Positions 2,342 to 16,069 of a stretch of DNA of 64,000 bases are shown piece after piece. The stretch covers positions 1 to 64,000 of the IMG/VR virus record IMGVR_UViG_3300023174_000068, one strand, 5' to 3'. The stretch's first letter is position 1, and the number at the start of each line of letters is the position of its first letter. The notes beneath the pieces were generated by a model, which saw only the letters and a list, made by a program, of their open reading frames with translations, made no database searches and was not told the origin of the DNA. The DNA comes from a virus. Position numbers and translations under genes: made by a program.

Positions 2342-3511
2342 TTATTGATCTAAAAATTGATCATTTTCTAAGGTCAGATAAGTCGGATTTAAATTTAACC
2401 TAATTTGTGATTTTAAGAAATCACCATCTCGTTGTTTTAGAAGTTTAAATCTATAAATATTTTGACGCTTCATTTCCTCGGTTCTAATGATAGCAAAAAA
2501 TGTATCAGCAGTTTCAGCTATCGCCTTACTCTCAGGAACCGATTCAAGTGTGATATCGGATGAGTTCCAAGCATCTTTTGCCACTTGAACTCCTGTAATC
2601 ACAGGACACTTATATTTTGCACCTAATGCTCTTAAACCCTCGGCTAACGACTTACCCTTTGAATAAAGATTGTCACCGCCTAATCCCTTTGGAGCAGCAA
2701 CTAATGTGATATAATCGACAATTATTAAATCTATTTTGATATCTTTTTTGTCCCTTAACTTTTGCAGGTAGTAGTCAAAATCTGATACTGTGGCTGTTCC
2801 GGCTGCCCAAAATTTACTAAAAATCTTTCCAACTTTTTTATCAAAAATATCACCACCTTCTTTTATACTACCCAGGCCTCTAATTCTTTTGGTGATCATA
2901 TCGGTGTCTTTAGAAACAGCGTCATAATCATTAATGGGAATCTTTAGGCGCATAGCACCTAGTCTTTTCATAACTTTTCTTTCAGACATTTCTAAGGTTA
3001 TATAAAGCACATTATATCCGGCGTCGGCTGATTTGAAGGCGAAATTTTGCATCCAAAGTGAATTATGACTTAAAATATCATTGGTGTAATACTGTTTATT
3101 TGAACCACTGGAAAGTTGAATATCATACATGTGCGACTTTTGACCAGTTAATCCAATACCCATAACCATTTCTGGGCCGTCTTTTGTCATAATAAAATCA
3201 CCGCAACTTAAATCTTTAGTGCACAACTCAGTCAGGTCACACTTTTTATCGAGGAAATTTAAATTATCACATCTATATACCAAGTGCTCATCGGCACAAA
3301 TCAACTCTTTACCACCAGATGTTTGAATTACCCACTCGTCATATTCTACTGTTTTTCCAATACCCTCAATATCAACCCAACCATTTGGTGTCAGCACTTG
3401 CAAATCCTTAACCTCATAAGCCTCGATGAATTTGTCATAAAGGGGTCTATCATATTTGCCACTCAGAAGACTATCTGCTTCAATTATTTCAAAATTATCT
3501 AAATTATTCAT
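2342..3511 (-). CDS. 41: Replicative DNA helicase (T4 gp41/DnaB type), C-terminal half with intein C-fragment
   Basis: 389 residues: a 150-residue intein C-fragment followed by a 239-residue C-extein. The extein begins SLWMQNFAFKSADAG and carries DnaB/gp41 RecA-fold motifs: YITLEMSE, Walker B IIVDYITLV, the sensor-like VITGVQVAKDA, and the basic FKLLKQRDGD. Joined to the N-terminal half (3620-4351) it restores the Walker A as GK-S and gives a 443-residue helicase, close to T4 gp41 (about 475). The protein would be the 5'-3' replisome helicase. The two genes are in the same reading frame but separated by 108 bases with several stops, so the product must form by protein trans-splicing rather than read-through. 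Confidence 0.92.
   Translation of the reverse strand: MNNLDNFEIIEADSLLSGKYDRPLYDKFIEAYEVKDLQVLTPNGWVDIEGIGKTVEYDEWVIQTSGGKELICADEHLVYRCDNLNFLDKKCDLTELCTKDLSCGDFIMTKDGPEMVMGIGLTGQKSHMYDIQLSSGSNKQYYTNDILSHNSLWMQNFAFKSADAGYNVLYITLEMSERKVMKRLGAMRLKIPINDYDAVSKDTDMITKRIRGLGSIKEGGDIFDKKVGKIFSKFWAAGTATVSDFDYYLQKLRDKKDIKIDLIIVDYITLVAAPKGLGGDNLYSKGKSLAEGLRALGAKYKCPVITGVQVAKDAWNSSDITLESVPESKAIAETADTFFAIIRTEEMKRQNIYRFKLLKQRDGDFLKSQIRLNLNPTYLTLENDQFLDQ
3062..3511 (-). other. Split intein C-fragment in the DnaB-like helicase
   Basis: 150 residues ending YYTNDILSHN just before Ser+1: block F/G ending in the His-Asn pair expected for Asn cyclisation. It contains the block-B-like CADEHLVY and a strand VLTPNGW that resembles the start of AceL-TerL IntC. 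The first ~30 residues (MNNLDNFEIIEADSLL...) are acidic. This distribution, with block B in the C-fragment, marks an atypically split intein. Confidence 0.88.
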
Positions 3512-3619: not shown

Positions 3620-4351
3620 TTATCGCTTAGTCATTGTAATCCCCTTACTAATTTCGGAGAATAGTGTTCCGAAATCACGAATTGACATTTTGTCATTTTT
3701 CTTATTTTTTAAGACAATTTTACTGACAAAATGACAACATTTGCCGTTGTTAGTCTCTGCCATGATACAATTTAAGGTTTGTATATCCCAACCACCACCA
3801 AGCATATGGTCTAAAGTTTCGAATCCAGATTTTATCTTAAACTTTGATGAGTCCTGAACATGATTTTCTGGATCATCAAAATCAGAACCCATGTCATCAT
3901 CTTGCACAAAATTAGTTGATGACATTTCATCTACTATTGACTTAATTCTATCGGCGGCTTCTACAGCCTTATCAAAATCAGATATTTGGTCTAAGTTTCT
4001 AGTTTCATCAATAATATCAACGGTTCCGGTTTTAAGCCGGTTAGAAAGCACCCAGGCATTGAATTTTGGTTCAATAAAGTTTTTCTCATCGTATTCAGAA
4101 AGTTTGACTTGCAGAATTGATTTAAGTATTTCTTTTGTAATTTGACCCTCTTTGTCTTCTAAAGACACCATATCTAAAATTTGTCTAGCCGTTGGTATCT
4201 TACTGTCGCTTTGAGCTAAAATATAATTTCTTAATACACCATAGACAAACTGAATTTGAGAGTTTCTAAAAAAGTGAGGCTTTACAATATCAAAGTATTT
4301 CTTATACTGTAAAACGTAATTAAAAAAAACTTTTTCAAGCTGAGGTGTCAT
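3620..4351 (-). CDS. 41: Replicative DNA helicase (T4 gp41/DnaB type), N-terminal half with intein N-fragment
   Basis: 243 residues: a 204-residue N-extein and a 39-residue intein N-fragment. The extein has a helical N-terminal domain like DnaB/gp41 and then the RecA-fold entry KIKSGFETLDHMLGGGW and AETNNGK, which is Walker A stopped after GK. The next residue is the intein Cys1, so the Walker A Ser is supplied only by the downstream gene after trans-splicing; this product alone cannot bind ATP. It starts at an ATG with a TATATA box about 25 bases upstream. It could instead be called a pseudogene, but both halves retain intact splice-junction residues. Confidence 0.9.
   Translation of the reverse strand: MTPQLEKVFFNYVLQYKKYFDIVKPHFFRNSQIQFVYGVLRNYILAQSDSKIPTARQILDMVSLEDKEGQITKEILKSILQVKLSEYDEKNFIEPKFNAWVLSNRLKTGTVDIIDETRNLDQISDFDKAVEAADRIKSIVDEMSSTNFVQDDDMGSDFDDPENHVQDSSKFKIKSGFETLDHMLGGGWDIQTLNCIMAETNNGKCCHFVSKIVLKNKKNDKMSIRDFGTLFSEISKGITMTKR
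3623..3739 (-). other. Split intein N-fragment in the DnaB-like helicase
   Basis: 39 residues beginning CCHFVSKIVLKNKKND directly after GK and ending in the basic MTKR. Cys1 is the nucleophile. The length is close to the short (about 25 residue) AceL-TerL N-fragment and far below the ~100 of ordinary split inteins. Its basic charge complements the acidic head of the C-fragment. Confidence 0.82.
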
Positions 4352-6817: not shown

Positions 6818-8089
6818 TTACGCCTCAATCTTAACATTTACTTTTTTAATAGCTTCTTGAATCCAATCTGGTAAAAATTGAGAAGAGTGTTTAATAACAT
6901 CTCCAAATCCACCATCAATAATAATAGTATCAGCATAATCCATTTCAGAACGAACCGGTCTTCCAGTCATTTGTATCAGACCAGAAACGGTTTTCCAACT
7001 ATACCAATCCGGGTTATTTTTTTGTCTTAATTTATTTTTTTGAGATGCAAGACTGGGATAAGGAATTTTAGCAATAATTTGAAAACGAGCCGAATCGTTG
7101 TCAAAACTGACACCAGTATCCATAGACGGGCTTACAATTACGGTGGGTTCTTCTGATTCCATATGTAATCTTAACATTTCATCTTTATTAGATGAGTCAT
7201 GAAATATCAGTCTTGGATTTTTAATAGACGACTGAATCCAATTAGCTAATTCAAAGGAATTGGTGTGAATAATACCCTTTTGCTCTTTATACTTGTCAAG
7301 TAGTTTATTTATGTAAGGAATATATTTTCTAAAAGTTTCTTCTTTAGACTTAAATGACATTTTACCAATCGGCATATAGTAGATTGGTCTATTTTTTTTA
7401 GCAAAAGGTGAAGGTATTGAATAATATACGGCTTTTGATACATCAAGTCCATTTAATTGACAGAATAAATTTTTATCCAGTATTGTTCCCGACATCAAAA
7501 AAACCATATCATAGTGTGAAAAAACATATTTATCTAAATAGTCGTAAGCCCAGATTGGCTCAAGTGATAATTCTTTTTGTTTTGTTTTTTCATTCCAATT
7601 TGATTCTAAGACCCAATTATTAGGATTTTCTTTATACTCCTTTAAGAAAACTTCAATTTTAAGTTGATATTGCTTTAAGTCGGTGATTAAATTCATTATC
7701 TTAACATCTGGATTTCCAGTTTTTAAGACTTTAGACAATTTTAGATCTCTTTTGTCTGACTTTGATGACCTTATCACTCCTGACATACCTCTTTCCATAT
7801 CGGTCATAGTTTCGCTAATTTCTAAGTTGATATACTTAAGAAACTCTACATAGTCTAAAATGGAAGCGGTTGATTTTAGTTTTTTAATTATCTCACGCTC
7901 ATTTGAGAATTTAAACTTTTTGATGACCGTTTCGGTAATTTTAATTGTGATAAAATCAGACATAACATCATCGAAATCATGACAATTGCTAACACAGTGA
8001 TTGTTGGCAAAATAATTATGATTATCCTTTATGTGTAGATTATAAACATCTTCTGTGTAGTCTATTTTACTAATTTTTTTTATTTTCAT
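6818..8089 (-). CDS. XPD/DinG-like helicase, C-terminal part with intein C-fragment
   Basis: 423 residues: a 35-residue intein C-fragment and a 388-residue C-extein. After splicing the extein begins CHDFDDVMSDF, so the upstream VLIVDE plus CH makes a DECH form of the DEAH box. Further SF2 motifs of the XPD/DinG type follow: FLMSGTIL, GIIHTNSFEL, SPSMDTGVSFD and QMTGRPVRSEMD (motif VI). With the N-terminal half the helicase would be 555 residues. Expected role: ATP-dependent 5'-3' helicase in repair or recombination. The ATG overlaps the end of the endonuclease gene by 20 bases in another frame. Confidence 0.9.
   Translation of the reverse strand: MKIKKISKIDYTEDVYNLHIKDNHNYFANNHCVSNCHDFDDVMSDFITIKITETVIKKFKFSNEREIIKKLKSTASILDYVEFLKYINLEISETMTDMERGMSGVIRSSKSDKRDLKLSKVLKTGNPDVKIMNLITDLKQYQLKIEVFLKEYKENPNNWVLESNWNEKTKQKELSLEPIWAYDYLDKYVFSHYDMVFLMSGTILDKNLFCQLNGLDVSKAVYYSIPSPFAKKNRPIYYMPIGKMSFKSKEETFRKYIPYINKLLDKYKEQKGIIHTNSFELANWIQSSIKNPRLIFHDSSNKDEMLRLHMESEEPTVIVSPSMDTGVSFDNDSARFQIIAKIPYPSLASQKNKLRQKNNPDWYSWKTVSGLIQMTGRPVRSEMDYADTIIIDGGFGDVIKHSSQFLPDWIQEAIKKVNVKIEA
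7985..8089 (-). other. Split intein C-fragment (Npu DnaE-like, 35 residues) in the XPD-like helicase
   Basis: Begins MKIKKISKIDYTEDVYNL and ends HCVSN before Cys+1. Length, start Met and the pattern VYNLHIKDNHNYF...SN|C match the cyanobacterial DnaE IntC layout. The penultimate residue is Ser, as in DnaE inteins, not His. Confidence 0.88.
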
Positions 8090-8972
8090 TTCTAAATTGT
8101 CTCAAATTTTTAATAACCTTCTTCTCACATGGCTGCCCCTTTAATAATTCAGGATTGTAATTTTTTTTAAACCACTTATCTGTAATTAATATAAATTTAT
8201 AACCATTTAGTTTACACCATTTTTTAGCATAATAGATTTTACTTTTTACTTTATCGTTATCCTTGTTAGATAGAGGCTTTATTTCATATAATATCCGATC
8301 TTTGAGGTCTACAAAATCGACAATATAATTAAACTCATCTCCAAGATATTGATAAGGTATTATTAGTTTCTCATATAATAAATTAGTGTTGAATAATTGA
8401 AAATAGGCTTCCCAACTAGATCTAGTTTTGATTTTGACAACTTCGTCCCCCCTTTGTAATTGAACCTCACATTTTGAGTTTGCCCAACTATTTGTAACGT
8501 TTGGGATAAATCTACCTTCTCTAATGTTTTTTTTCATTTTTTTGGAGTTTTTATCACACATTGATTTAAAACTTTCCTCTGTCATTCTATGACAAGTGTT
8601 ATTTTTTCCCATTTGTCTTTTTGATATAGATTTATAATTACAGTCTGGATTTTCACAGAATTTATAAATTCCATATTTTTGATTAACGTTTATATAATCT
8701 TGTCTATTGGGAAACAGTGAAGTCAATTTTCTATTACTATAACAGTTTTCATTTTTACACTTCTTATCCCAGTGTTCTGTTAAATAATTGAAGCAATGTT
8801 GATGGCTTTCAAAAATCAAATTTTTTTGAAATTTACTTATCAAAAAATTTAAAGTCGATATGGCGTCAGATTCTTTTTTTTTATAGATAAATTTTTCTTT
8901 GCAAGATGATAGAAAATCGTAAATCTCATCCTTCTGCATGACTGTCAAATTCATGTGATTCGATTTTTTCAT
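8070..8972 (-). CDS. Putative PD-(D/E)xK homing endonuclease inside the split XPD intein
   Basis: 300 residues. It has Cys-rich zinc-binding-like segments (CKNENC, CENPDC) and then a nuclease-like core: TRSSWEAYF, VDFVDLKDRILYEIKP (D...ExK), KSKIYYAKKW and FILITDKWF. This resembles TnsA-like or Holliday-type PD-(D/E)xK folds. The gene sits where canonical inteins carry their endonuclease and overlaps the intein N-half by 47 bases and the C-half by 20 bases, each in a different frame. Starts at Met7 or Met12 are possible. A role in spreading the intein is inferred from position. Catalytic assignment is by pattern only. Confidence 0.75.
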   Translation of the reverse strand: MKKSNHMNLTVMQKDEIYDFLSSCKEKFIYKKKESDAISTLNFLISKFQKNLIFESHQHCFNYLTEHWDKKCKNENCYSNRKLTSLFPNRQDYINVNQKYGIYKFCENPDCNYKSISKRQMGKNNTCHRMTEESFKSMCDKNSKKMKKNIREGRFIPNVTNSWANSKCEVQLQRGDEVVKIKTRSSWEAYFQLFNTNLLYEKLIIPYQYLGDEFNYIVDFVDLKDRILYEIKPLSNKDNDKVKSKIYYAKKWCKLNGYKFILITDKWFKKNYNPELLKGQPCEKKVIKNLRQFRNENKKN

Positions 8973-9762
8973 TTATATATAAAATCTCATCATCTTCATT
9001 CAGATCCTCTACTTTTTTCCAACTACCATCAGATATTTTGACTTTGTGATTACCTGTTATTCTCAAAATGTCTCCATTATTCATTTCGATTTCATACATC
9101 TGGGCCCCTTTATTCAAATTATGATGCAACTTAACGACGGGTTTATTTTCTATTTCACCAGACTGCTCATTAATAGTTTTCACTAAATCACCAACTTGTA
9201 TGTCTTTAATTTTTTTAGTAGAATTATCCCAAAGAGTTATCTCAGTTTCTGGGTGTAGACACTCGTCCACAATTAACACTCGAGAACCTCTATTTTCTAT
9301 TAATTTTGGATTATAAATTGCATAGAGTATGTAAAGATAGAAATTTGTCAAAGAAATTCCACCAGAAATAAAACTTTCCCTTGCATAAGCATACGGACAA
9401 CTTTCACAAGTAGTTTTATTTAGCCTATTAAATTCAGCACCCTGTGCACAGGAGCAGGAATAGGCATCACACTCATAATTTTCTTTTCCTTTTAGGTCGC
9501 AAATCGATTGATAAGTATCAGAATATTGATTTTGAAGAATTTTAGAGTTGGTGATGATATCTATTTTAGATGACTTATCAACAGTTCTTCTAAACCAATC
9601 AGCAATCATTAAGGCCAAATGGCTTTTACCTGATCCAACAGGCATATTTAGTAGAAAAAACTTATTTAATTTATTTTTCTGGTATTCAGAATCAATAAAA
9701 CTAAGTGCCTCTTTTTGTTCTTTTCTTGGCTTATAAAGACCAAGGTCTTTTTTTAATGACAT
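8926..9762 (-). CDS. XPD/DinG-like helicase, N-terminal part with intein N-fragment
   Basis: 278 residues: a 167-residue N-extein and a 111-residue intein N-fragment. The extein has Walker A MPVGSGKSHLA near residue 40 and six cysteines between residues ~88 and 122 (SICDLKG, YECDAYSCSC, TTCESC), the place of the XPD/DinG iron-sulfur domain. It ends at VLIVDE, the first half of the DEAH box. The intein Cys1 follows immediately, so the box is completed only by trans-splicing. The nuclease motifs of Cas3-type helicases are absent. The ATG start is supported by the N-terminal KPRKEQKEAL, a Q-motif-like lead-in. Confidence 0.9.
   Translation of the reverse strand: MSLKKDLGLYKPRKEQKEALSFIDSEYQKNKLNKFFLLNMPVGSGKSHLALMIADWFRRTVDKSSKIDIITNSKILQNQYSDTYQSICDLKGKENYECDAYSCSCAQGAEFNRLNKTTCESCPYAYARESFISGGISLTNFYLYILYAIYNPKLIENRGSRVLIVDECLHPETEITLWDNSTKKIKDIQVGDLVKTINEQSGEIENKPVVKLHHNLNKGAQMYEIEMNNGDILRITGNHKVKISDGSWKKVEDLNEDDEILYINEKIESHEFDSHAEG
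8929..9261 (-). other. Split intein N-fragment (DnaE-like) in the XPD-like helicase
   Basis: 111 residues. It starts CLHPETEITLW (block A; compare DnaE CLSYETEIL), has IQVGDLVKTI and the block-B motif GNHKVKI, and ends in an acidic tail that overlaps the start of the endonuclease ORF. Confidence 0.88.
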
Positions 9763-9850: not shown

Positions 9851-10576
9851 TCACCCGTGGAATCCCCCACTAGCTGTTGATACACCAATTTGTTCACCAA
9901 ATTCTTCAAAACAAATATTCCAGTATTTTTTACCATCATATTCATTGCCTGGTTTAAAGGTTACAATTTTTTTATCACCCAGTTCCATAAGTTTACCCAA
10001 TAACATACTAGGTTCAAATATTCCTTGGTATTTTAGTTCTCTTGCCTTTTTTTGCAAATCTTCTTTTATGAAGTTCCAAGTTTGTTTTAGAGTCTCTAAT
10101 TCTTTACCCTTCATTTCTTCCGGGGTAGAATATTGACCGGTCTTATAATCAAACCAACCATTCTTTTTGATAAAATCAACCTGTAGAATTTGAGAAGGGC
10201 TGTTCACTATAGAGGCTGATTTTGTCCATTCTAATTTTTTATTTAAGCTCTCTTTGTTAATAGGCCAAGACTTAGCCACAGCGTCAAACTCAACATATGG
10301 ATTTTTTCCGATCAATTGAGCTCTCTTATTGTCTTCTCCTAACTCCTTAGCAATACCAATAGGGTCTTGATTTATTTTAATTTTACTTTCTGGGTTTTGC
10401 ATGTTCGCTAAAATTTGTTTTTCAATGTTTACCATTTCAGCGTCGAACTTGTCTTTTAGTGGTTTCAAATCTTCATCAGACTCTCTGCCTAGTAATTTTC
10501 TAACACCTTTAAATAATTCTTCTTCTTCGTTCAGAGAAGAATAGGTAAAGTTTTCGTAGGTTTTGATATACTTCAT
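9851..10576 (-). CDS. Putative internal head protein with capsid-targeting tag
   Basis: 241 residues, no known domain. The N-terminus MKYIKTYENFTYSSLNE is a clear example of the shared tag, ending in LNE, a match to the T4 prohead-protease consensus. The rest is soluble and charged, with no membrane segment, and ends in a Gly-rich STASGGFHG. It is likely packaged in the capsid and trimmed after Glu17. Its own TATATA box is about 22 bases upstream. The body could be an injected effector, but the sequence gives no enzymatic motif. Confidence 0.68.
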   Translation of the reverse strand: MKYIKTYENFTYSSLNEEEELFKGVRKLLGRESDEDLKPLKDKFDAEMVNIEKQILANMQNPESKIKINQDPIGIAKELGEDNKRAQLIGKNPYVEFDAVAKSWPINKESLNKKLEWTKSASIVNSPSQILQVDFIKKNGWFDYKTGQYSTPEEMKGKELETLKQTWNFIKEDLQKKARELKYQGIFEPSMLLGKLMELGDKKIVTFKPGNEYDGKKYWNICFEEFGEQIGVSTASGGFHG

Positions 10577-10597
10577 AGTTTTTATTTTTTCTTAACT

Positions 10598-10603
10598 TAT
10601 ATA
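10598..10603 (-). promoter_or_regulatory. TATATA box upstream of the 241-residue tagged protein
   Basis: TATATA 22 bases before the ATG at 10576, standard late-type placement. Confidence 0.4.
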
Positions 10604-10638
10604 TTCTTTTTTCAAACTTATTTTTTTTCAAAAAATTT

Positions 10639-10668
10639 TTGATAATTAGAAGAAATAATCTATATTTG
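10639..10668 (+). promoter_or_regulatory. Host-type (Bacteroidota sigma) promoter, TTG-N19-TATATTTG
   Basis: A TTG (in TTTTTG) followed after exactly 19 bases by TATATTTG. The published Bacteroidota sigma consensus is a -33 TTG and a -7 TAnnTTTG. Predicted transcription start is near 10674, leaving a ~24-base leader before the ATG at 10698. Confidence 0.65.
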
Positions 10669-10697
10669 TATAAATAAACATTTAGAACACAAAAAAT

Positions 10698-10970
10698 ATG
10701 AAAAATCTATCAATATTCTACTTCAAATATTATAAATCTATTCATCACATTGTGTTCGTGTTGATAGTATTTTCTTTTTTGAAACTTTTATCTTTGTTTG
10801 TAGACATTTTCAACTTAGTATTTCAAATTAGTTCAATTGGTCTGTTTTTACAATTGGTTATTTTGGTATCTTGTTATTTCTTGAATGAGAGAGCTCTCGT
10901 TAAAGCGGGATTGACTCCAGAATACATGGCTGAAGAATTGGAAAGAGTGAAAAAAAAAAGAGGTGAATAA
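10698..10970 (+). CDS. Small two-helix membrane protein, likely early
   Basis: 90 residues with two hydrophobic segments (HHIVFVLIVFSFLKLLSLF and SIGLFLQLVILVSCYFL) and a charged C-terminal tail ending VKKKRGE. No family recognised. It is one of three genes driven by a host-type promoter, so it is likely expressed early and may modify the host envelope. Its stop codon lies inside a strong terminator hairpin. Confidence 0.75.
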   Translation: MKNLSIFYFKYYKSIHHIVFVLIVFSFLKLLSLFVDIFNLVFQISSIGLFLQLVILVSCYFLNERALVKAGLTPEYMAEELERVKKKRGE

Positions 10971-10990
10971 TTTCACCTCTTTTTTTTCAA
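10951..10990. terminator. Bidirectional rho-independent terminator
   Basis: A perfect 9-base stem AGAGGTGAA / TTCACCTCT with loop TAAT, flanked by A and T runs on both sides, so it can end transcripts in both directions. It separates the early membrane gene from the convergent gene ending at 11003. The left arm overlaps the end of the coding sequence. Confidence 0.85.
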
Positions 10991-11002
10991 ATTTATAAAA
11001 AA

Positions 11003-11674
11003 TTAAAGACCTCCTTCTTCTCGAAGTTCTCCTTTTGTTTTTCCCTTTGTAGCGATAAGACCCGCGATTCCCAAAGCTAATCCGCCAAATAACATTCCTA
11101 ACATAAGAGGTCCTGCTATAATCGACAGACCTGTTCCAGTTGCAACAACAAGGCCAGTATTTACTGCATAAAGAATAGCACCAAGAAGTGAACTAATAAC
11201 ACCAGTATACTGAGCCCCAATTCCAAACCAATTCATTATTCTTTTTGCAGTTGAAACTTTCTTATCTTCAATCTCTTCTAAAATTAGTGAATATGCTTCG
11301 TAAATTTTTGTGCCAACTTTATGACCCCTAAGAGATTCTGCCTGTGCTTGAACTTTAACTAATTCTTCAGCCGTTTGTGATAAATCCGCTGGTGGCTCAT
11401 CACCTTTAAATGATTGAGTTTTAGCTGATAAATCATCTACATCCTTTGGATTTAGTTTATCAAACATGGGTTGAACATTTTTGTCCCAATATTCTTTTAA
11501 TTTAGGATTTTTCTTAATAATTTCTTCGAACATTTTTGCTCCCTGTTGCATTTTTTTACTTTTCCAGTTTTTCCACATACTTCCTAATTTAGACCATATG
11601 GAGCCTTCTCCCCACAATAAACCTTCATTTGTTGGCTCATAGTTGAAATTTTCGAATGTTTTTACGTATTTCAT
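11003..11674 (-). CDS. Putative internal head protein with two C-terminal membrane segments
   Basis: 223 residues. Tag MKYVKTFENFNYEPTNE is followed by GLL; the cleavage triplet would be TNE, a near match to [LI]-x-E. The middle is helical and charged. The C-terminal third has strongly hydrophobic stretches (ISSLLGAILYAVNTGLV and LSIIAGPLMLGMLFGGLAL), consistent with membrane insertion after ejection. Its promoter and first codons are a near copy of those of the gene at 11729, showing recent duplication of the leader module while the bodies differ. Confidence 0.68.
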   Translation of the reverse strand: MKYVKTFENFNYEPTNEGLLWGEGSIWSKLGSMWKNWKSKKMQQGAKMFEEIIKKNPKLKEYWDKNVQPMFDKLNPKDVDDLSAKTQSFKGDEPPADLSQTAEELVKVQAQAESLRGHKVGTKIYEAYSLILEEIEDKKVSTAKRIMNWFGIGAQYTGVISSLLGAILYAVNTGLVVATGTGLSIIAGPLMLGMLFGGLALGIAGLIATKGKTKGELREEGGL

Positions 11675-11725
11675 ATCTTTTTTTATTTTTTATAACTTAT
11701 ATATTTTAGTTAAAAACTGATTTTT
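11658..11725 (-). repeat. Promoter plus start-codon cassette, copy 1
   Basis: 68 bases covering the first codons, leader and TATATA box of the gene at 11674, identical by eye at all but one position to 12246-12313. See the second copy. Confidence 0.8.
11698..11703 (-). promoter_or_regulatory. TATATA box upstream of the 223-residue tagged protein
   Basis: TATATA 24 bases before the ATG at 11674, within the duplicated leader cassette. Confidence 0.4.
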
Positions 11726-11728
11726 AGA

Positions 11729-12262
11729 TTAGTATCTACCAGCAGTTCCAAAGGTAATGCCACCTTTTGTACCACCTTTGTTTATTAACGCATCCTTGCT
11801 CCATTCCGATTTCACTTTTTTGATAAATTCTTTATCTTTCATTAAATTGTCGTAAATAGACTGAGATAACGAATCTAAATCTTTAGCAGCCTCTGGATTC
11901 TTCTCTACTATTTCTTTCGCTCTCTTTTCAGCTTCTTCCTGAACCACCATCTTAAGACCTTTCTTTGCAGTCAATGCAGCGCTACCAAATCCACAAGCGG
12001 TTATAATTGCCGCTCCAGCTACAAATATAGCAGCTGATAACAATGTGAACGGTTCTTCTTCTTCATTTGTCTTTGTTGGAATCATTTTAATTTCATCTTG
12101 GACATCTAAGACTTCGTCTGTGTCTAGTCCTCTGCTTTTAGCCAAATTTTGAGTAGCTTTTTCTATTTCAGGTGAATTCGGCGTCAAACCAGATGGTGCA
12201 TCAAGTAATTGTTGCGCCTCCATGCCTTTAGAGTGTGATTCAAAAGTTTTTACGTATTTCAT
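11729..12262 (-). CDS. Putative internal head protein with one membrane segment
   Basis: 177 residues. It begins MKYVKTFESHSKGMEAQQLL, the same tag as its downstream neighbour but without a clear [LI]-x-E site nearby. A single hydrophobic stretch (FTLLSAAIFVAGAAIITACG) lies at about residues 72-92. The C-terminus is basic and Gly-rich (GGTKGGITFGTAGRY). Capsid packaging is inferred from the tag. Confidence 0.63.
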   Translation of the reverse strand: MKYVKTFESHSKGMEAQQLLDAPSGLTPNSPEIEKATQNLAKSRGLDTDEVLDVQDEIKMIPTKTNEEEEPFTLLSAAIFVAGAAIITACGFGSAALTAKKGLKMVVQEEAEKRAKEIVEKNPEAAKDLDSLSQSIYDNLMKDKEFIKKVKSEWSKDALINKGGTKGGITFGTAGRY

Positions 12263-12313
12263 ATCTTTTTTTATTTTTTATAACATATATATTTTAGTTA
12301 AAAACTGATTTTT
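12246..12313 (-). repeat. Promoter plus start-codon cassette, copy 2
   Basis: 68 bases, one visible mismatch to 11658-11725, spanning the first codons, the A/T leader and the TATATAT box. The shared block ends at the same distance upstream of both genes. Confidence 0.8.
12286..12292 (-). promoter_or_regulatory. TATATAT box upstream of the 177-residue tagged protein
   Basis: TATATAT about 24 bases before the ATG at 12262, in the duplicated cassette. Confidence 0.4.
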
Positions 12314-12352
12314 TTGTTTTATTAAAATAATTTAAAAAAATTTAAAATTTAA

Positions 12353-12358
12353 TATATA
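12353..12358 (+). promoter_or_regulatory. TATATA box upstream of the small ORF and HAD phosphatase
   Basis: TATATA in TTTAATATATAAT, 20 bases before the ATG at 12378. Confidence 0.4.
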
Positions 12359-12377
12359 ATAAAAATCGATTTTACCT

Positions 12378-12545
12378 ATGCAATTTGTCCCACAGTATGA
12401 CGAATTTATGATTTATAAAACTCTAAGTGATATACATGGGTCTATAGACTCGTCTGAAAGTCTCAAAACTTTAGAAGTTGAAGACATTTATATGACTTGC
12501 GTAGAACAATTTGAAATAAAAGAATGTATTGATGGCAAAAATTGA
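12378..12545 (+). CDS. Small hypothetical protein (55 residues)
   Basis: ATG CAA TTT ... TGA, 55 codons, acidic, beginning MQFVPQYDEFMIYKTL. It has a well-placed TATATA box and its end overlaps the start of the next gene by 14 bases, suggesting translational coupling. No family recognised. I consider it real because of the promoter and overlap, but it is short. Confidence 0.5.
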   Translation: MQFVPQYDEFMIYKTLSDIHGSIDSSESLKTLEVEDIYMTCVEQFEIKECIDGKN

Positions 12546-13185
12546 GAAATTCTACGAATTCAATAAAGTTTCAGACACACTCCATGCATTTGACTTTGAT
12601 GACACTTTATTTGAAACACCAAAGTGGGAAGATGTTGCAAAAAAATTTATATTTGAAAACAACGCCGTCAAGGATTTAGTAGATATTGCTCTTTCTGAAA
12701 TTGGCAATAATAAATCAAAGTTAAAAACTCAAGATGGTCGGATATTTTTAGAAGACCCGTTAAATGTGTTCTCTGAAACAAAAAACTGGGTTAGAAAAGG
12801 CGCTAGATTATATTTAGTTCAACCCGATAAATTTACTTACTTAGATGAAAGTCTACCAACAGGACTTAAAAATATATCCAAAATTTATAAAGAAGTAGAA
12901 AATAAATGCATCATTACCGCTAGACCAGAAAGTATGAGAGATAAAATAGAAACGGTTTTAAAAAATTCTGGGTTAGAATATCCAAAATTTGGCCTTTGGA
13001 TGTGTCCGGATGGAAGAGTTAGAGCCGGTGTGTGGAAAGGTGAAAAAATATGTGAGATTAGTAAAAAATTCAAATTCAATGAAGTAATTTTTTATGACGA
13101 TAACTCAAAGTATCTAAGAGACTCAAAAAGAGTTGTTTCTGAAAAAATGCCACAGTTAATATTTAAAACCGTAAAGGTGTTTTAG
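12532..13185 (+). CDS. HAD-superfamily phosphatase-like protein
   Basis: 217 residues from the ATG at 12532; a TTG three bases upstream is an unlikely start. Motif I is DFDDTLFETP with nucleophile and acid Asp21/Asp23, motif II is the Thr in CIITARPESM, and the acidic motif III is VIFYDDNSKYL. This fits the HAD fold with a small cap, like phage polynucleotide or nucleotide phosphatases. The start MAKIEKFYEFN resembles the capsid tag but no cleavage site is obvious. The 3' end overlaps the convergent protease gene by 23 bases. Confidence 0.82.
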   Translation: MAKIEKFYEFNKVSDTLHAFDFDDTLFETPKWEDVAKKFIFENNAVKDLVDIALSEIGNNKSKLKTQDGRIFLEDPLNVFSETKNWVRKGARLYLVQPDKFTYLDESLPTGLKNISKIYKEVENKCIITARPESMRDKIETVLKNSGLEYPKFGLWMCPDGRVRAGVWKGEKICEISKKFKFNEVIFYDDNSKYLRDSKRVVSEKMPQLIFKTVKVF

Positions 13186-13708
13186 AAAGGCAATCACTAC
13201 ACAATAGGGGTTTATCCGTTTTTTCATTCCATCTAAATTCCGATGAAGAGTTCATAATACACCTATTATTGCAATGTTCTAAGCCAAAACTGTGTAAGAT
13301 TTCATGAACAGTTGTTTCACAAAGTTTCTCACTGTTATGTGCGTAAATTTGATTACCGTAGCATATTCCCCGAATGCCAACTCCGTTGTCCACCAACTCT
13401 GAGTTGGTAACATAAACTGTAATTGGCTCGTCACTGTCATAATAAAAGAATGTGTCATTTCCAAACTCCATTTGAGCTTCGGATGGTAAATAGAGAAAAT
13501 TATTATAATCTGTAAACTTTGGACTATCTATTGTGCAGATAAATCCAAGTTTTTTCAGTTTTTTTTGAAGTGTATCAAGATGTGAACCACCGGTAGAATT
13601 TAGACTAACTAAAACAATATCAGGAATTAGTTTTTTTTCGATTTCATCTTTTATAAAAATGATATAAATAGAGAAAATGACCGCTAAAAGTATAAGTATT
13701 TTTTTCAC
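13163..13708 (-). CDS. Archaemetzincin-like zinc metalloprotease with N-terminal membrane anchor
   Basis: 181 residues. Residues ~3-20 form a signal-anchor (ILILLAVIFSIYIIFI). The active site is HEILHSFGLEHC (H135, E136, H139, H145), followed by Cys150, Met152, exactly 17 residues, then CSDC (C170, C173). This follows the published archaemetzincin signature HExxHxxGx3C..CxMx17CxxC, except that three rather than four residues lie between the first two cysteines. Such an enzyme would act on the outside of the inner membrane. It is driven by a host-type promoter. The substrate is unknown. Confidence 0.85.
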   Translation of the reverse strand: MKKILILLAVIFSIYIIFIKDEIEKKLIPDIVLVSLNSTGGSHLDTLQKKLKKLGFICTIDSPKFTDYNNFLYLPSEAQMEFGNDTFFYYDSDEPITVYVTNSELVDNGVGIRGICYGNQIYAHNSEKLCETTVHEILHSFGLEHCNNRCIMNSSSEFRWNEKTDKPLLCSDCLSKTPLRF

Positions 13709-13722
13709 TTAAAAGATTTTAA

Positions 13723-13752
13723 CAAATATAATTAAAAAAAATAACTTATCAA
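13723..13752 (-). promoter_or_regulatory. Host-type promoter for the archaemetzincin gene, TTG-N19-TATATTTG
   Basis: On the minus strand TTG (13752-13750), a 19-base spacer, then TATATTTG (13730-13723). The start codon is at 13708. Same elements and same spacing as at 10639 and 17672. Confidence 0.7.
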
Positions 13753-13762
13753 AATATTTTAT

Positions 13763-14401
13763 CTATTCTGGTATAAAAACTTCACCACCCAAGTCACCCC
13801 AAGCTAAACCACCATGTGGTCCAAGTTCTCCACTAAATACGTCACCAAGTGGAGCTGATTGGTCCATATTTTGAAGTTTCAACAGATTTGCAAGAACGGT
13901 TTCTTTTTCACCACCAGTTTTCAGACCAGCTACTAAATTTTGACAACCTTCTTCATAACTACCATTTCCCATTTTTTGAGCAACCACATCAGTGAAATCA
14001 CTCAATTTAGAATCAGGTCCTAAATCTGACCCAAATTGTCTATTCAAAAATTGGGTCTCTCCTTCTCCTGGTTTAAATTCAACCCACCTGCCTTTTACAT
14101 CTGGTTTCGGAACCGGAGGCTCGGTAGTAAAAGCTTTGTAAATTAAAGCCGCCCCGGCAACCGTTAGTGCCAATCCAATACCAAATTGGTTATTTTTTTC
14201 TCTAATAATTATACTTCTTAGATATTTTGCAGCTTCAGTAGGATCTTGAATATAAAGATTTCTCAATTTAGTCAAATCACTCTGAGGAAGTTTATCTAAT
14301 TCATCACCAGCAGATTGACCAGTAACTGTTCTTCTCATCTTTGCTCCAAAAGAAGCCAATCCCTCAGTGGTAAATTCATCAAACTTGATTATTCTGTTCA
14401 T
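13763..14401 (-). CDS. Putative internal head protein with one membrane segment
   Basis: 212 residues starting at the ATG at 14401, one base after the stop of the upstream gene (TAATATG), which argues for translational coupling and for this start over one 36 bases further up. Tag MNRIIKFDEFTTE precedes GLASFG. A hydrophobic segment (FGIGLALTVAGAALIYKAF) sits around residues 85-105, followed by Pro-rich PPVPKPD. Short acidic C-terminus. Function inferred only from the tag and context. Confidence 0.65.
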   Translation of the reverse strand: MNRIIKFDEFTTEGLASFGAKMRRTVTGQSAGDELDKLPQSDLTKLRNLYIQDPTEAAKYLRSIIIREKNNQFGIGLALTVAGAALIYKAFTTEPPVPKPDVKGRWVEFKPGEGETQFLNRQFGSDLGPDSKLSDFTDVVAQKMGNGSYEEGCQNLVAGLKTGGEKETVLANLLKLQNMDQSAPLGDVFSGELGPHGGLAWGDLGGEVFIPE

Positions 14402-14402
14402 A

Positions 14403-16043
14403 TTATTTTGTAAATTTTTTAAATGAAAACATTTCACTCACCGAATCTTGACTTTTGTAATACTCCATTATTTTTTTAAGTGAGGTATTGAAGTCTTTCA
14501 TATCGGCTCCAAATTCTCCAAGTGCTGAATACATGTTTTCACCTTCGAATTGTAGAGTTCTTTTTGCCAGTCGAGCCATTTTTTCAGCCACTACCTTTCT
14601 CTTATTTTTATCAGATATGATGTCAATACTTTCTTTATATAAAGGACCAAAATCAGGCAGTGTTTTAGAGTATTTACCATAAAGGTGTTCGTAGATATCA
14701 TTATATAGTGATTTGATAACATCCTTAGAAGGACTATCTAATTTTTTCTGAAGTATATCATCTATAAACTGTTCTGTTACTCCAATTCCTTTATCTTTTT
14801 GGTCAACTATATTATTCATAGATTTTTGGATATTCTTGTAAGCTTGAACAAGATAGTCTTCAGCAGCAGTAATTGTTACCTTTCTTGGTTGTTTTGAAAA
14901 TTCTTTTTCAAAAATTGCAAAACTTTTAATGGACTCCCCAACTACAGACATATTTTTTGCTGTAACTTTATTAGACTTTGATTTAATACCCTGTGATTTA
15001 GATAATTCGTCATTTTCTAATCCAACGCCACCAAAAGAAATAATCATACTTTTAAGAGATTGTAGATTTTTAATCATTTCTGGATAAATAGACTTCAATG
15101 ATTGAGAATCAACTTTTGGTTTTTCGTCAATAACCTCTTCAAAATCATTAGAAATTTCTTCAATGTCATCAGATGATATGTATTCTTCTTTAGATTTATT
15201 GGAAAAATAGTTACCCAGATACGCCAGACAATCCTCAACCGTTGGATAAGGCTTACATATCCAAATAGCCAATATAATTAAGCCGGCCATAAGTAACATA
15301 CCACCAATTGCTGCCATCAAAATTGGACTCATCCCGGCCAACACACCAGCTAATGAAATACCGGCTAATTTTAGGATGCCCATAATGATTAAACCAATGG
15401 TTCCTTTTTTTACAATCTGTGAAACCACTCCGTTAAATCTAGCATTTTTGATTCCTAATGCATAAGCCAGTTTTTCAAACATGCCATAATGGTGTATTTC
15501 ATCATCACCTATGTCGTTAGCAGATTCTGAAATCCTAACATTATTCCCCACTTGTTGAAGTTTATCTTCACTAAATCCTTCTTTAGACCAATCCACTAAA
15601 TTTTTTGCACTCCTACAAAGGTATGCCCAGATATTTTTGAAATTAGGTCGGTTATTTTCATCACAAAGTCCATTTCTTACAATAAAATCGCTAAATCCAC
15701 TTAGGAGGTCTTTTACCTTTTGAAACATGCCAGATCCTATTTCTTTGATTTTTTGAGAAACGGCTGAAATTAACTTTTTAATTGAAAAGTTTTTGAAGAA
15801 ATTAACAACTCCATTAAATACTCTTGAAATAACATCTCCGACACCCCTAATAACTGATTTTACAGCGGCTTTTCCTTTTTGGTATTTGTCCTTTAACCAC
15901 TTACCAATAAGCTCTTCGGTAATTAATCCCTCGATAGGTTTGATTATATCTTCAACAGAAATATTTTCCTCAGATAAGAATCTACTTTCTATTAATTTAG
16001 ACTCATATAATTTAGAGTAGTTGGAATAATTTTTAACTTTCAT
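14403..16043 (-). CDS. Large putative internal head protein with C-terminal domain shared with the 903-residue protein
   Basis: 546 residues from the ATG at 16043; a start 24 bases upstream would lie within the promoter. MKVKNYSNYSKLYESKLIES gives the tag plus two cleavage-like triplets (LYE, LIE). A long hydrophobic region (GTIGLIIMGILKLAG through MAGLIILAIWIC) lies near residues 210-265. From about residue 320 to 545 it is paralogous to residues ~180-455 of the gene at 54386; compare SLYNDIYEHLYG with SLYKEILRYLVG, and PLYKESIDIISDKNKRKVVAEK with PLYKESIEIISDKNKK. Likely a packaged, possibly pore-forming protein. Confidence 0.7.
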   Translation of the reverse strand: MKVKNYSNYSKLYESKLIESRFLSEENISVEDIIKPIEGLITEELIGKWLKDKYQKGKAAVKSVIRGVGDVISRVFNGVVNFFKNFSIKKLISAVSQKIKEIGSGMFQKVKDLLSGFSDFIVRNGLCDENNRPNFKNIWAYLCRSAKNLVDWSKEGFSEDKLQQVGNNVRISESANDIGDDEIHHYGMFEKLAYALGIKNARFNGVVSQIVKKGTIGLIIMGILKLAGISLAGVLAGMSPILMAAIGGMLLMAGLIILAIWICKPYPTVEDCLAYLGNYFSNKSKEEYISSDDIEEISNDFEEVIDEKPKVDSQSLKSIYPEMIKNLQSLKSMIISFGGVGLENDELSKSQGIKSKSNKVTAKNMSVVGESIKSFAIFEKEFSKQPRKVTITAAEDYLVQAYKNIQKSMNNIVDQKDKGIGVTEQFIDDILQKKLDSPSKDVIKSLYNDIYEHLYGKYSKTLPDFGPLYKESIDIISDKNKRKVVAEKMARLAKRTLQFEGENMYSALGEFGADMKDFNTSLKKIMEYYKSQDSVSEMFSFKKFTK

Positions 16044-16069
16044 AAAATAAATTGTATTTTTATACAATC

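What the first reader, a model, noticed from the sequence alone, without database searches (positions are those of the whole stretch)
6818..9762. XPD-like helicase split in the DEAH box by an Npu DnaE-like intein with the nuclease overlapping both halves
Seen: N-extein ends VLIVDE, C-extein begins CHDFDD, so splicing rebuilds DECH. The N-fragment (CLHPETEI..GNHKV) and 35-residue C-fragment (MKIKKISKID..VSN|C) match DnaE inteins. A putative PD-(D/E)xK nuclease ORF overlaps the N-half by 47 bases and the C-half by 20 bases, in three different frames. It looks like a freshly fragmented endonuclease-containing intein. I do not know of an intein at this DEAH-box site.
Basis: partly seen in the sequence, partly recalled or inferred. 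Interest (0 to 1): 0.88.

Follow-up and report, generated by a model that had tools for sequence, protein, structure and literature searches.

The report
Mobile split intein in phage helicase
In this phage a DNA helicase gene is cut in two, at its most conserved motif, by a self-splicing protein element carrying its own DNA-cutting enzyme; the same arrangement recurs in other phages, so it is a working mobile element and not an error, and the general kind is already known.

Summary
Three minus-strand ORFs encode an XPD/DinG-like helicase N-half plus intein N-part, a PD-(D/E)xK (TnsA-like) nuclease, and intein C-part plus helicase C-half, overlapping by 47 (probably 29) and 20 bases in three frames. 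The intein sits exactly in motif II, DE^C...N^CH.

The "freshly fragmented" reading and the sequencing-error worry are not supported. Eight loci, one of them a second contig identical to the window, carry the same split intein at the same site; seven keep an intact nuclease overlapping the C-half start (six also the N-half end), one keeps only a nuclease remnant. Thirty-two scanned relatives have an uninterrupted VDE[ASC]H box. On the helicase tree, occupancy needs seven changes for eight occupied rows. One occupied/empty pair has 93-95% identical DNA on both sides of a clean 1,278-bp insertion.

The site is not new to sequence collections: isolated Proteus phage PM2 and Salmonella phages S16 and SEA1 have the same layout in UvsW, and a pattern scan found at least 120 inteins with this C-terminal junction.

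Best explanation: a trans-splicing split intein with its homing endonuclease (a "fractured gene", Dassa et al. 2009) that moves between phages and has entered UvsW-like and XPD-like helicases.

The parts
9262..9762 (-). N-extein: XPD/DinG-like SF2 helicase residues 1-167 (Walker A PVGSGKS, four-Cys Fe-S-like cluster, ends at motif II VLIVDE)
   Evidence: phrog_2488 DNA helicase E=3.4e-25; aligns to intein-free L005/L006
8926..9261 (-). Intein N-part (111 aa, CLHPETEI...TGNHK...HAEG, with stop)
   Evidence: Pfam Hint 7.7e-11, Intein_splicing; TIGR01445 34.5 bits; Cys1 and TxxH (TGNH) present
8070..8972 (-). PD-(D/E)xK TnsA-like nuclease gene, putative homing endonuclease; longest start 8972, probable conserved start 8954 (MNLTV)
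   Evidence: phrog_15427 endonuclease 3e-25; RSSWEA...YIVDF...YEIKP conserved in 15 homologues; fold match TnsA 1t0f, prob 1.00, E 4.8e-3
8926..8972 (-). 47-bp overlap of nuclease with N-half (29 bp, 8926-8954, if the conserved start is used)
8070..8089 (-). 20-bp overlap of nuclease with C-half
7985..8089 (-). Intein C-part, 35 aa (MKIKKISKID...NYFANNHCVSN)
   Evidence: Intein_splicing C-end match; 83-89% identical in the six relatives compared
6818..7984 (-). C-extein: rest of helicase, from CHDFDD (Helicase_C_2), with stop
   Evidence: Helicase_C_2 7.5e-14; phrog_2488 8e-65; DinG/YoaA/Rad3 weak NCBIfam matches

Best explanation
The locus is a fractured gene. An XPD/DinG-like phage helicase is encoded in two halves that end or begin with one half of a split intein. 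The halves associate, splice in trans through Cys1, terminal Asn and Cys+1, and leave a seamless helicase with motif II DECH. The gene between the halves encodes a PD-(D/E)xK (TnsA-like) homing endonuclease that would cut intein-free helicase alleles at or near the DE[ASC]H codons, so that the ~1.28-kb element (intein halves plus nuclease) is copied in by recombination during co-infection. Shown here: anatomy, precise insertion, scattered occupancy, recurrence of the same element in related and in non-orthologous helicases, signs of purifying selection. Inferred: that splicing occurs, that the nuclease cuts DNA, where it cuts, and that recombination follows the cut.
For: Eight occupied loci at exactly VDE^C...N^CH of this gene (window/L127, L133, L141, L144, L150, L154, L164, L058) against 32 empty ones in the scan plus two huge-phage genomes. 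Occupied L144 and empty L156 share 93.3% (3,833 bp) and 95.1% (6,164 bp) DNA flanks that break exactly at the element; insert 1,278 bp. Helicase tree: 8 occupied rows need 7 changes (shuffled mean 7.4), one clade rejected, AU p=4e-5. Intein identity mostly exceeds extein identity between loci, e.g. window-L144 0.82 vs 0.66. Intein tree: seven XPD-like cases form one clade (98/99), L058 sits in a clade of UvsW split inteins (97/97), so at least two entries into this gene or exchanges with UvsW. Rough median dN/dS: nuclease 0.25, IN 0.17, IC 0.05. Splicing residues conserved. Nuclease catalytic pattern conserved in 15 homologues; TnsA fold match; NUMOD3 motif in one homologue. Same three-gene layout in isolated phages.
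Against: No splicing or cleavage was tested. The Foldseek match is not strong by E-value or TM-score, and the fold of the nuclease's N-terminal half is unassigned. dS is near saturation, so dN/dS is only indicative. Intein tree supports are partly weak (128 columns). Repeated loss could account for part of the scattered occupancy. No ribosome-binding site is evident before any of the three starts, so expression of the overlapping genes is unclear.
Confidence: 0.85

Rival explanations
1. Working trans-splicing split intein, but the nuclease is no longer a homing enzyme (or serves another role such as marker exclusion); the scattered occupancy reflects past spread and loss.
For: L150 keeps the split intein with only a nuclease remnant in a 211-bp gap; L070 (UvsW-like) has a 69-bp gap and no nuclease.
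Against: Nuclease intact in seven of eight XPD-like loci, catalytic residues conserved, roughly purifying dN/dS; occupied/empty pair with ~95% identical flanks implies recent gain or loss.
Confidence: 0.11
2. Fragmentation artefact: sequencing frameshifts break one continuous ORF encoding an intein with an embedded endonuclease.
For: Three frames with short overlaps is what two frameshifts could look like.
Against: The same layout, with different overlap lengths (29-56 and 4-35 bp) and different stop/start contexts, is in divergent loci and in isolated phage genomes; each half has its own conserved start or stop; a second contig is identical.
Confidence: 0.01
3. A split gene without splicing: the halves form a non-covalent helicase and the intein parts are relics.
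For: Split phage genes that work as separate chains exist (nrdA of Aeh1, gene 43 of phage 25; PMC2988022).
Against: Cys1, TGNH, terminal Asn and Cys+1 are kept in all XPD-like copies and the intein C-part is nearly invariant; the break lies inside motif II, which an unspliced pair would have to rebuild across intein tails.
Confidence: 0.03

Closest known systems
UvsW split-intein loci of Proteus phage PM2 (MF001355) and Salmonella phages S16 (HQ331142) and SEA1 (OQ927978), annotated only as helicase / hypothetical protein / helicase
   Same: Split intein at the same DE^C...N^CH position of an SF2 helicase, homologous TnsA-like nuclease (25-30% overall identity to the window's), overlapping both halves (10 bp and 38 bp in PM2)
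   Different: Host gene is UvsW, not an XPD/DinG-like helicase; N-part ends about 14 residues earlier; penultimate intein residue His rather than Ser
Fractured genes (Dassa et al. 2009, NAR 37:2560; gp41, NrdA, NrdJ, IMPDH split inteins with a free-standing endonuclease gene between the halves; details recalled, paper not held)
   Same: Enzyme gene broken by a split intein with a free-standing endonuclease gene in between, mainly in phages
   Different: Nuclease here is TnsA-like PD-(D/E)xK, not the Vsr-like family named there; helicase type and DEAH-box site are not known to me from that paper
Unsplit inteins at the same DE^CH site in viral SF2 helicases (L033, L059, L082 mini-inteins of ~130 aa in UvsW-like proteins; L023 ~374-aa insert in a DinG-like protein)
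   Same: Same insertion point; the UvsW mini-inteins fall inside the split-intein clade
   Different: Continuous ORF; the mini-inteins have no nuclease
Npu DnaE naturally split intein
   Same: Canonical split site, Cys1, Cys+1, C-part of 35-36 aa
   Different: Only weak sequence similarity (E=0.04); cyanobacterial dnaE halves lie apart in the genome with no nuclease between them (recalled)

Membership tests
Split intein (canonical split) | N-part with Cys/Ser1 and block-B TxxH, C-part ending Asn before Cys/Ser/Thr+1 | tested here: met
   Cys1, TGNH, VSN|C; TIGR01445 over its cut-off
Split intein (canonical split) | The two parts lie on separate polypeptides with flanking extein halves of one protein | tested here: met
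   Separate ORFs; spliced product aligns end to end with intein-free relatives
Split intein (canonical split) | Trans-splicing activity | not testable with these tools
   Residues conserved; no assay possible
Fractured gene (Dassa 2009 arrangement) | Free-standing endonuclease gene between the two split-intein halves | tested here: met
   Nuclease 8972-8070 between the halves; repeated in relatives
Fractured gene (Dassa 2009 arrangement) | Vsr-like (EDxHD) nuclease, found in about half of the original loci (recalled; not a required feature) | tested here: not met
   Best family match is TnsA-like N, best fold TnsA; I-Bth0305I only rank 14, prob 0.80
Homing endonuclease | Element inserted precisely in a conserved gene site, with empty alleles in near relatives | tested here: met
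   L144 against L156, 93-95% flanks, clean 1,278-bp insertion
Homing endonuclease | Sporadic distribution not following the host-gene tree | tested here: met
   7 changes for 8 occupied rows; one clade rejected
Homing endonuclease | Cleaves the intein-free allele | not testable with these tools
   No assay possible
PD-(D/E)xK nuclease, TnsA-N-like (PF08722) | Acidic residue on helix, D, then (E/Q)xK on strand | tested here: met
   RS[SCT]W[ED]A - YI[VIAS]DF - E[IL][KR]P in 15 homologues; below the Pfam cut-off for the window protein itself (20.6 vs 26.5 bits)
XPD/DinG-like SF2 helicase | Walker A, Cys cluster between motifs Ia and II, DEAH-type motif II, Helicase_C_2 | tested here: met
   PVGSGKS; Cys cluster C-CSC-C-C; VDE+CH; Helicase_C_2 7.5e-14

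The most novel reading that the evidence does not exclude
A largely unrecognised mobile family, a canonical split intein plus a TnsA-like nuclease, is specialised on motif II (DE^[ASC]H) of SF2 helicases and has jumped between non-orthologous helicases (UvsW-like and XPD/DinG-like) in large phages, with intermediates (nuclease-loss remnants, rejoined or unsplit mini-inteins) that show the path between split and continuous inteins.
Probability: 0.5. Interest if true: 0.55.

Novelty: new member of a known kind. Interest (0 to 1): 0.42.

Why it matters
It supplies a set of new naturally split inteins, with very conserved C-parts, as candidates for protein ligation tools. It also gives a case where the origin of split inteins can be followed: empty, nuclease-bearing split, nuclease-decayed split and unsplit forms at the same site of related helicases. 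A nuclease family best known from Tn7 TnsA appears in what looks like the homing role.

Tried and rejected
Sequencing frameshift: rejected by the conserved layout in relatives and isolates. Fresh fragmentation: rejected by divergence among occupied loci. Close kinship with DnaE inteins: sequence support weak. Nuclease by sequence in the PDB: no hit; only family and fold searches helped. NCBIfam gave nothing for the nuclease. The nuclease scan of viral contigs found only 13 loci because of divergence. Literature: Dassa 2009 is not held; no held paper found that describes an intein in UvsW or at a helicase DEAH-box site. TerL Walker-B inteins exist in mycobacteriophages (PMC5050341), a related but different site.

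Full report
OBSERVATION. The window is bases 1-64000 of a 131,438-base phage record. Six of the seven intact XPD-locus nucleases (all but L058) share an in-frame Met at MNL/MNM, and L133, L141 and L144 have no Met before it, so the true window start is probably 8954, which makes the N overlap 29 bp. The intein starts at 9261 (Cys) and its C-part ends at 7985 (Asn); joining the exteins gives VLIVDECHDFDD, an uninterrupted motif II. The 555-aa spliced protein aligns over its whole length with uninterrupted homologues, up to 84% identity.

WHAT THE PARTS ARE. Helicase: Helicase_C_2 7.5e-14, ResIII 5.8e-8, phrog_2488 DNA helicase 8e-65, weak YoaA/DinG/Rad3 matches, and a four-Cys cluster between motif Ia and II; hence XPD/DinG-like. 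Intein: Hint 7.7e-11, TIGR01445 over its cut-off; similarity to DnaE intein chains is weak (E=0.04), so 'Npu DnaE-like' describes architecture more than sequence. Nuclease: phrog_15427 endonuclease 3e-25; TnsA-like N in 12 of 15 homologues; RS[SCT]W[ED]A ... YI[VIAS]DF ... E[IL][KR]P conserved; AlphaFold model with mean pLDDT 81, C-terminal domain mostly at or above 90, best PDB match TnsA (prob 1.00, E 4.8e-3), with the homing endonuclease I-Bth0305I further down. The N-terminal half has conserved Cys pairs that look like a zinc-binding module (inference).

RELATIVES IN THE SAME GENE. A scan of viral contigs gave 40 helicase relatives. Of these, 32 have an uninterrupted VDE[ASC]H box (some are near-copies of one another), seven are occupied by a split intein, and L157 was not read by the script. 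One occupied locus (L127) is a separately recorded contig identical to the window over 11,269 bp. A further occupied locus, L058, came from the pattern scan. Seven of the eight have an intact nuclease overlapping the C-half start by 4-35 bp; six of them also overlap the N-half end by 29-56 bp, while in L058 the nuclease starts 3 bp after the N-half stop. In L150 the nuclease is reduced to pieces within a 211-bp gap, recognisable at roughly 71-84% identity, while both intein parts stay intact. No unsplit intein was seen in close relatives of this gene.

MOBILITY. On the extein tree the eight occupied rows need seven changes of state, no fewer than shuffled labels, and holding them together is rejected. 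Occupied L144 and empty L156 are sister rows; their DNA matches at 93.3% and 95.1% on the two sides and breaks exactly at the element, a 1,278-bp insert after GAG, with TGC in place of GCA at the +1 codon. Inteins are usually more alike than exteins (window-L144 0.82 vs 0.66; L154-L164 0.88 vs 0.65; the reverse in L144-L164). All five segments show low dN/dS, although dS is close to saturation.

THE SITE BEYOND THIS GENE. Of 80 loci read, 25 are split, 38 continuous and 17 undetermined. Nearly all those with a readable N side sit at DE^C, most of them in SF2 helicases (UvsW-like, SNF2-like, XPD/DinG-like). Most split UvsW-like loci carry an ORF of ~270-340 aa between the halves that overlaps the C-half start by 4-38 bp. 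Continuous mini-inteins of ~130 aa at the same site occur in UvsW-like proteins (L033, L059, L082), and one ~374-aa insert in a distant DinG-like helicase (L023). Isolated Proteus phage PM2 and Salmonella phages S16 and SEA1 have the same three-gene layout in uvsW, annotated without mention of an intein. On the intein tree seven XPD cases form a clade and L058 lies among UvsW split inteins, so the element entered XPD-like genes at least twice, or moved the other way; the root is not known.

MECHANISM. Shown: anatomy, precise insertion, recurrence, sporadic occupancy, conserved catalytic residues. Inferred: trans-splicing restores the helicase; the nuclease opens empty alleles and the element is copied in during co-infection. 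Insertion inside motif II means that only exact removal restores function, the usual explanation for such sites (PMC2988022). Overlapping genes may couple translation, but no clear ribosome-binding site precedes any of the three starts.

COMPARISON. The arrangement meets the definition of a fractured gene (Dassa et al. 2009, cited in PMC10448857 and PMC7090010; text not held, details from memory). It differs in nuclease family and in host gene and site as far as I can recall. I therefore rate it a new member of a known kind; the breadth of the DEAH-box site and the passage between helicase families are the parts a specialist would find worth following.

SAME PHAGE. Two further fractured genes are in this genome: a gp41-like helicase split at Walker A inside the window, and a DNA polymerase split at YADTDS outside it. 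Three in one phage again argues for ordinary, repeated invasion by such elements.

Noticed in passing
window 3620-4351(-) and 2342-3511(-): gp41/DnaB-like replicative helicase split at Walker A (NGK^C...SHN^S) by an intein cut near its N end (N-part about 38 aa, C-part about 150 aa), only ~108 bp apart. A scan gave 62 relatives: some carry the C-part, most others match only from the extein start (residue ~151) and look intein-free. Resembles atypically split inteins such as AceL-TerL (recalled).
   Followed up: partly
G000:C1 about 106640-109480 (outside window; L245 3143-5981): DNA polymerase split at YADTDS^C by an intein N-part, then a 366-aa ORF with GIEFQGDIWHANP (Vsr/EDxHD-like by eye), then C-part ...DILVHN^SLFVSF with 8-bp overlap: a third fractured gene in this phage.
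   Followed up: partly
L150 3321-3532: Nuclease decayed to a 211-bp remnant between intact split-intein halves: an intermediate in nuclease loss.
   Followed up: yes
L080 (IMGVR_UViG_3300028888_000073), reverse strand 392-2684: Split intein with nuclease ORF (overlaps 26 and 4 bp) after what looks like a radical-SAM CxxxCxxC motif (NCKFC then HN^CH), so the same C-terminal junction is used outside helicases.
   Followed up: no
L040, L047: One SNF2-like phage helicase ORF with two inteins, one at Walker A (GLGK) next to a LAGLIDADG_3 match and one at DE^CH.
   Followed up: no
L131, L138, L142, L158, L162: Intein-free XPD-like helicases that already have Cys at the +1 position (DECH); either ready acceptors or traces of past precise loss.
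   Followed up: no
window 9851-16067(-): Several ORFs start with similar MKYIKTYENF / MKYVKTFE leaders on otherwise different proteins.
   Followed up: no
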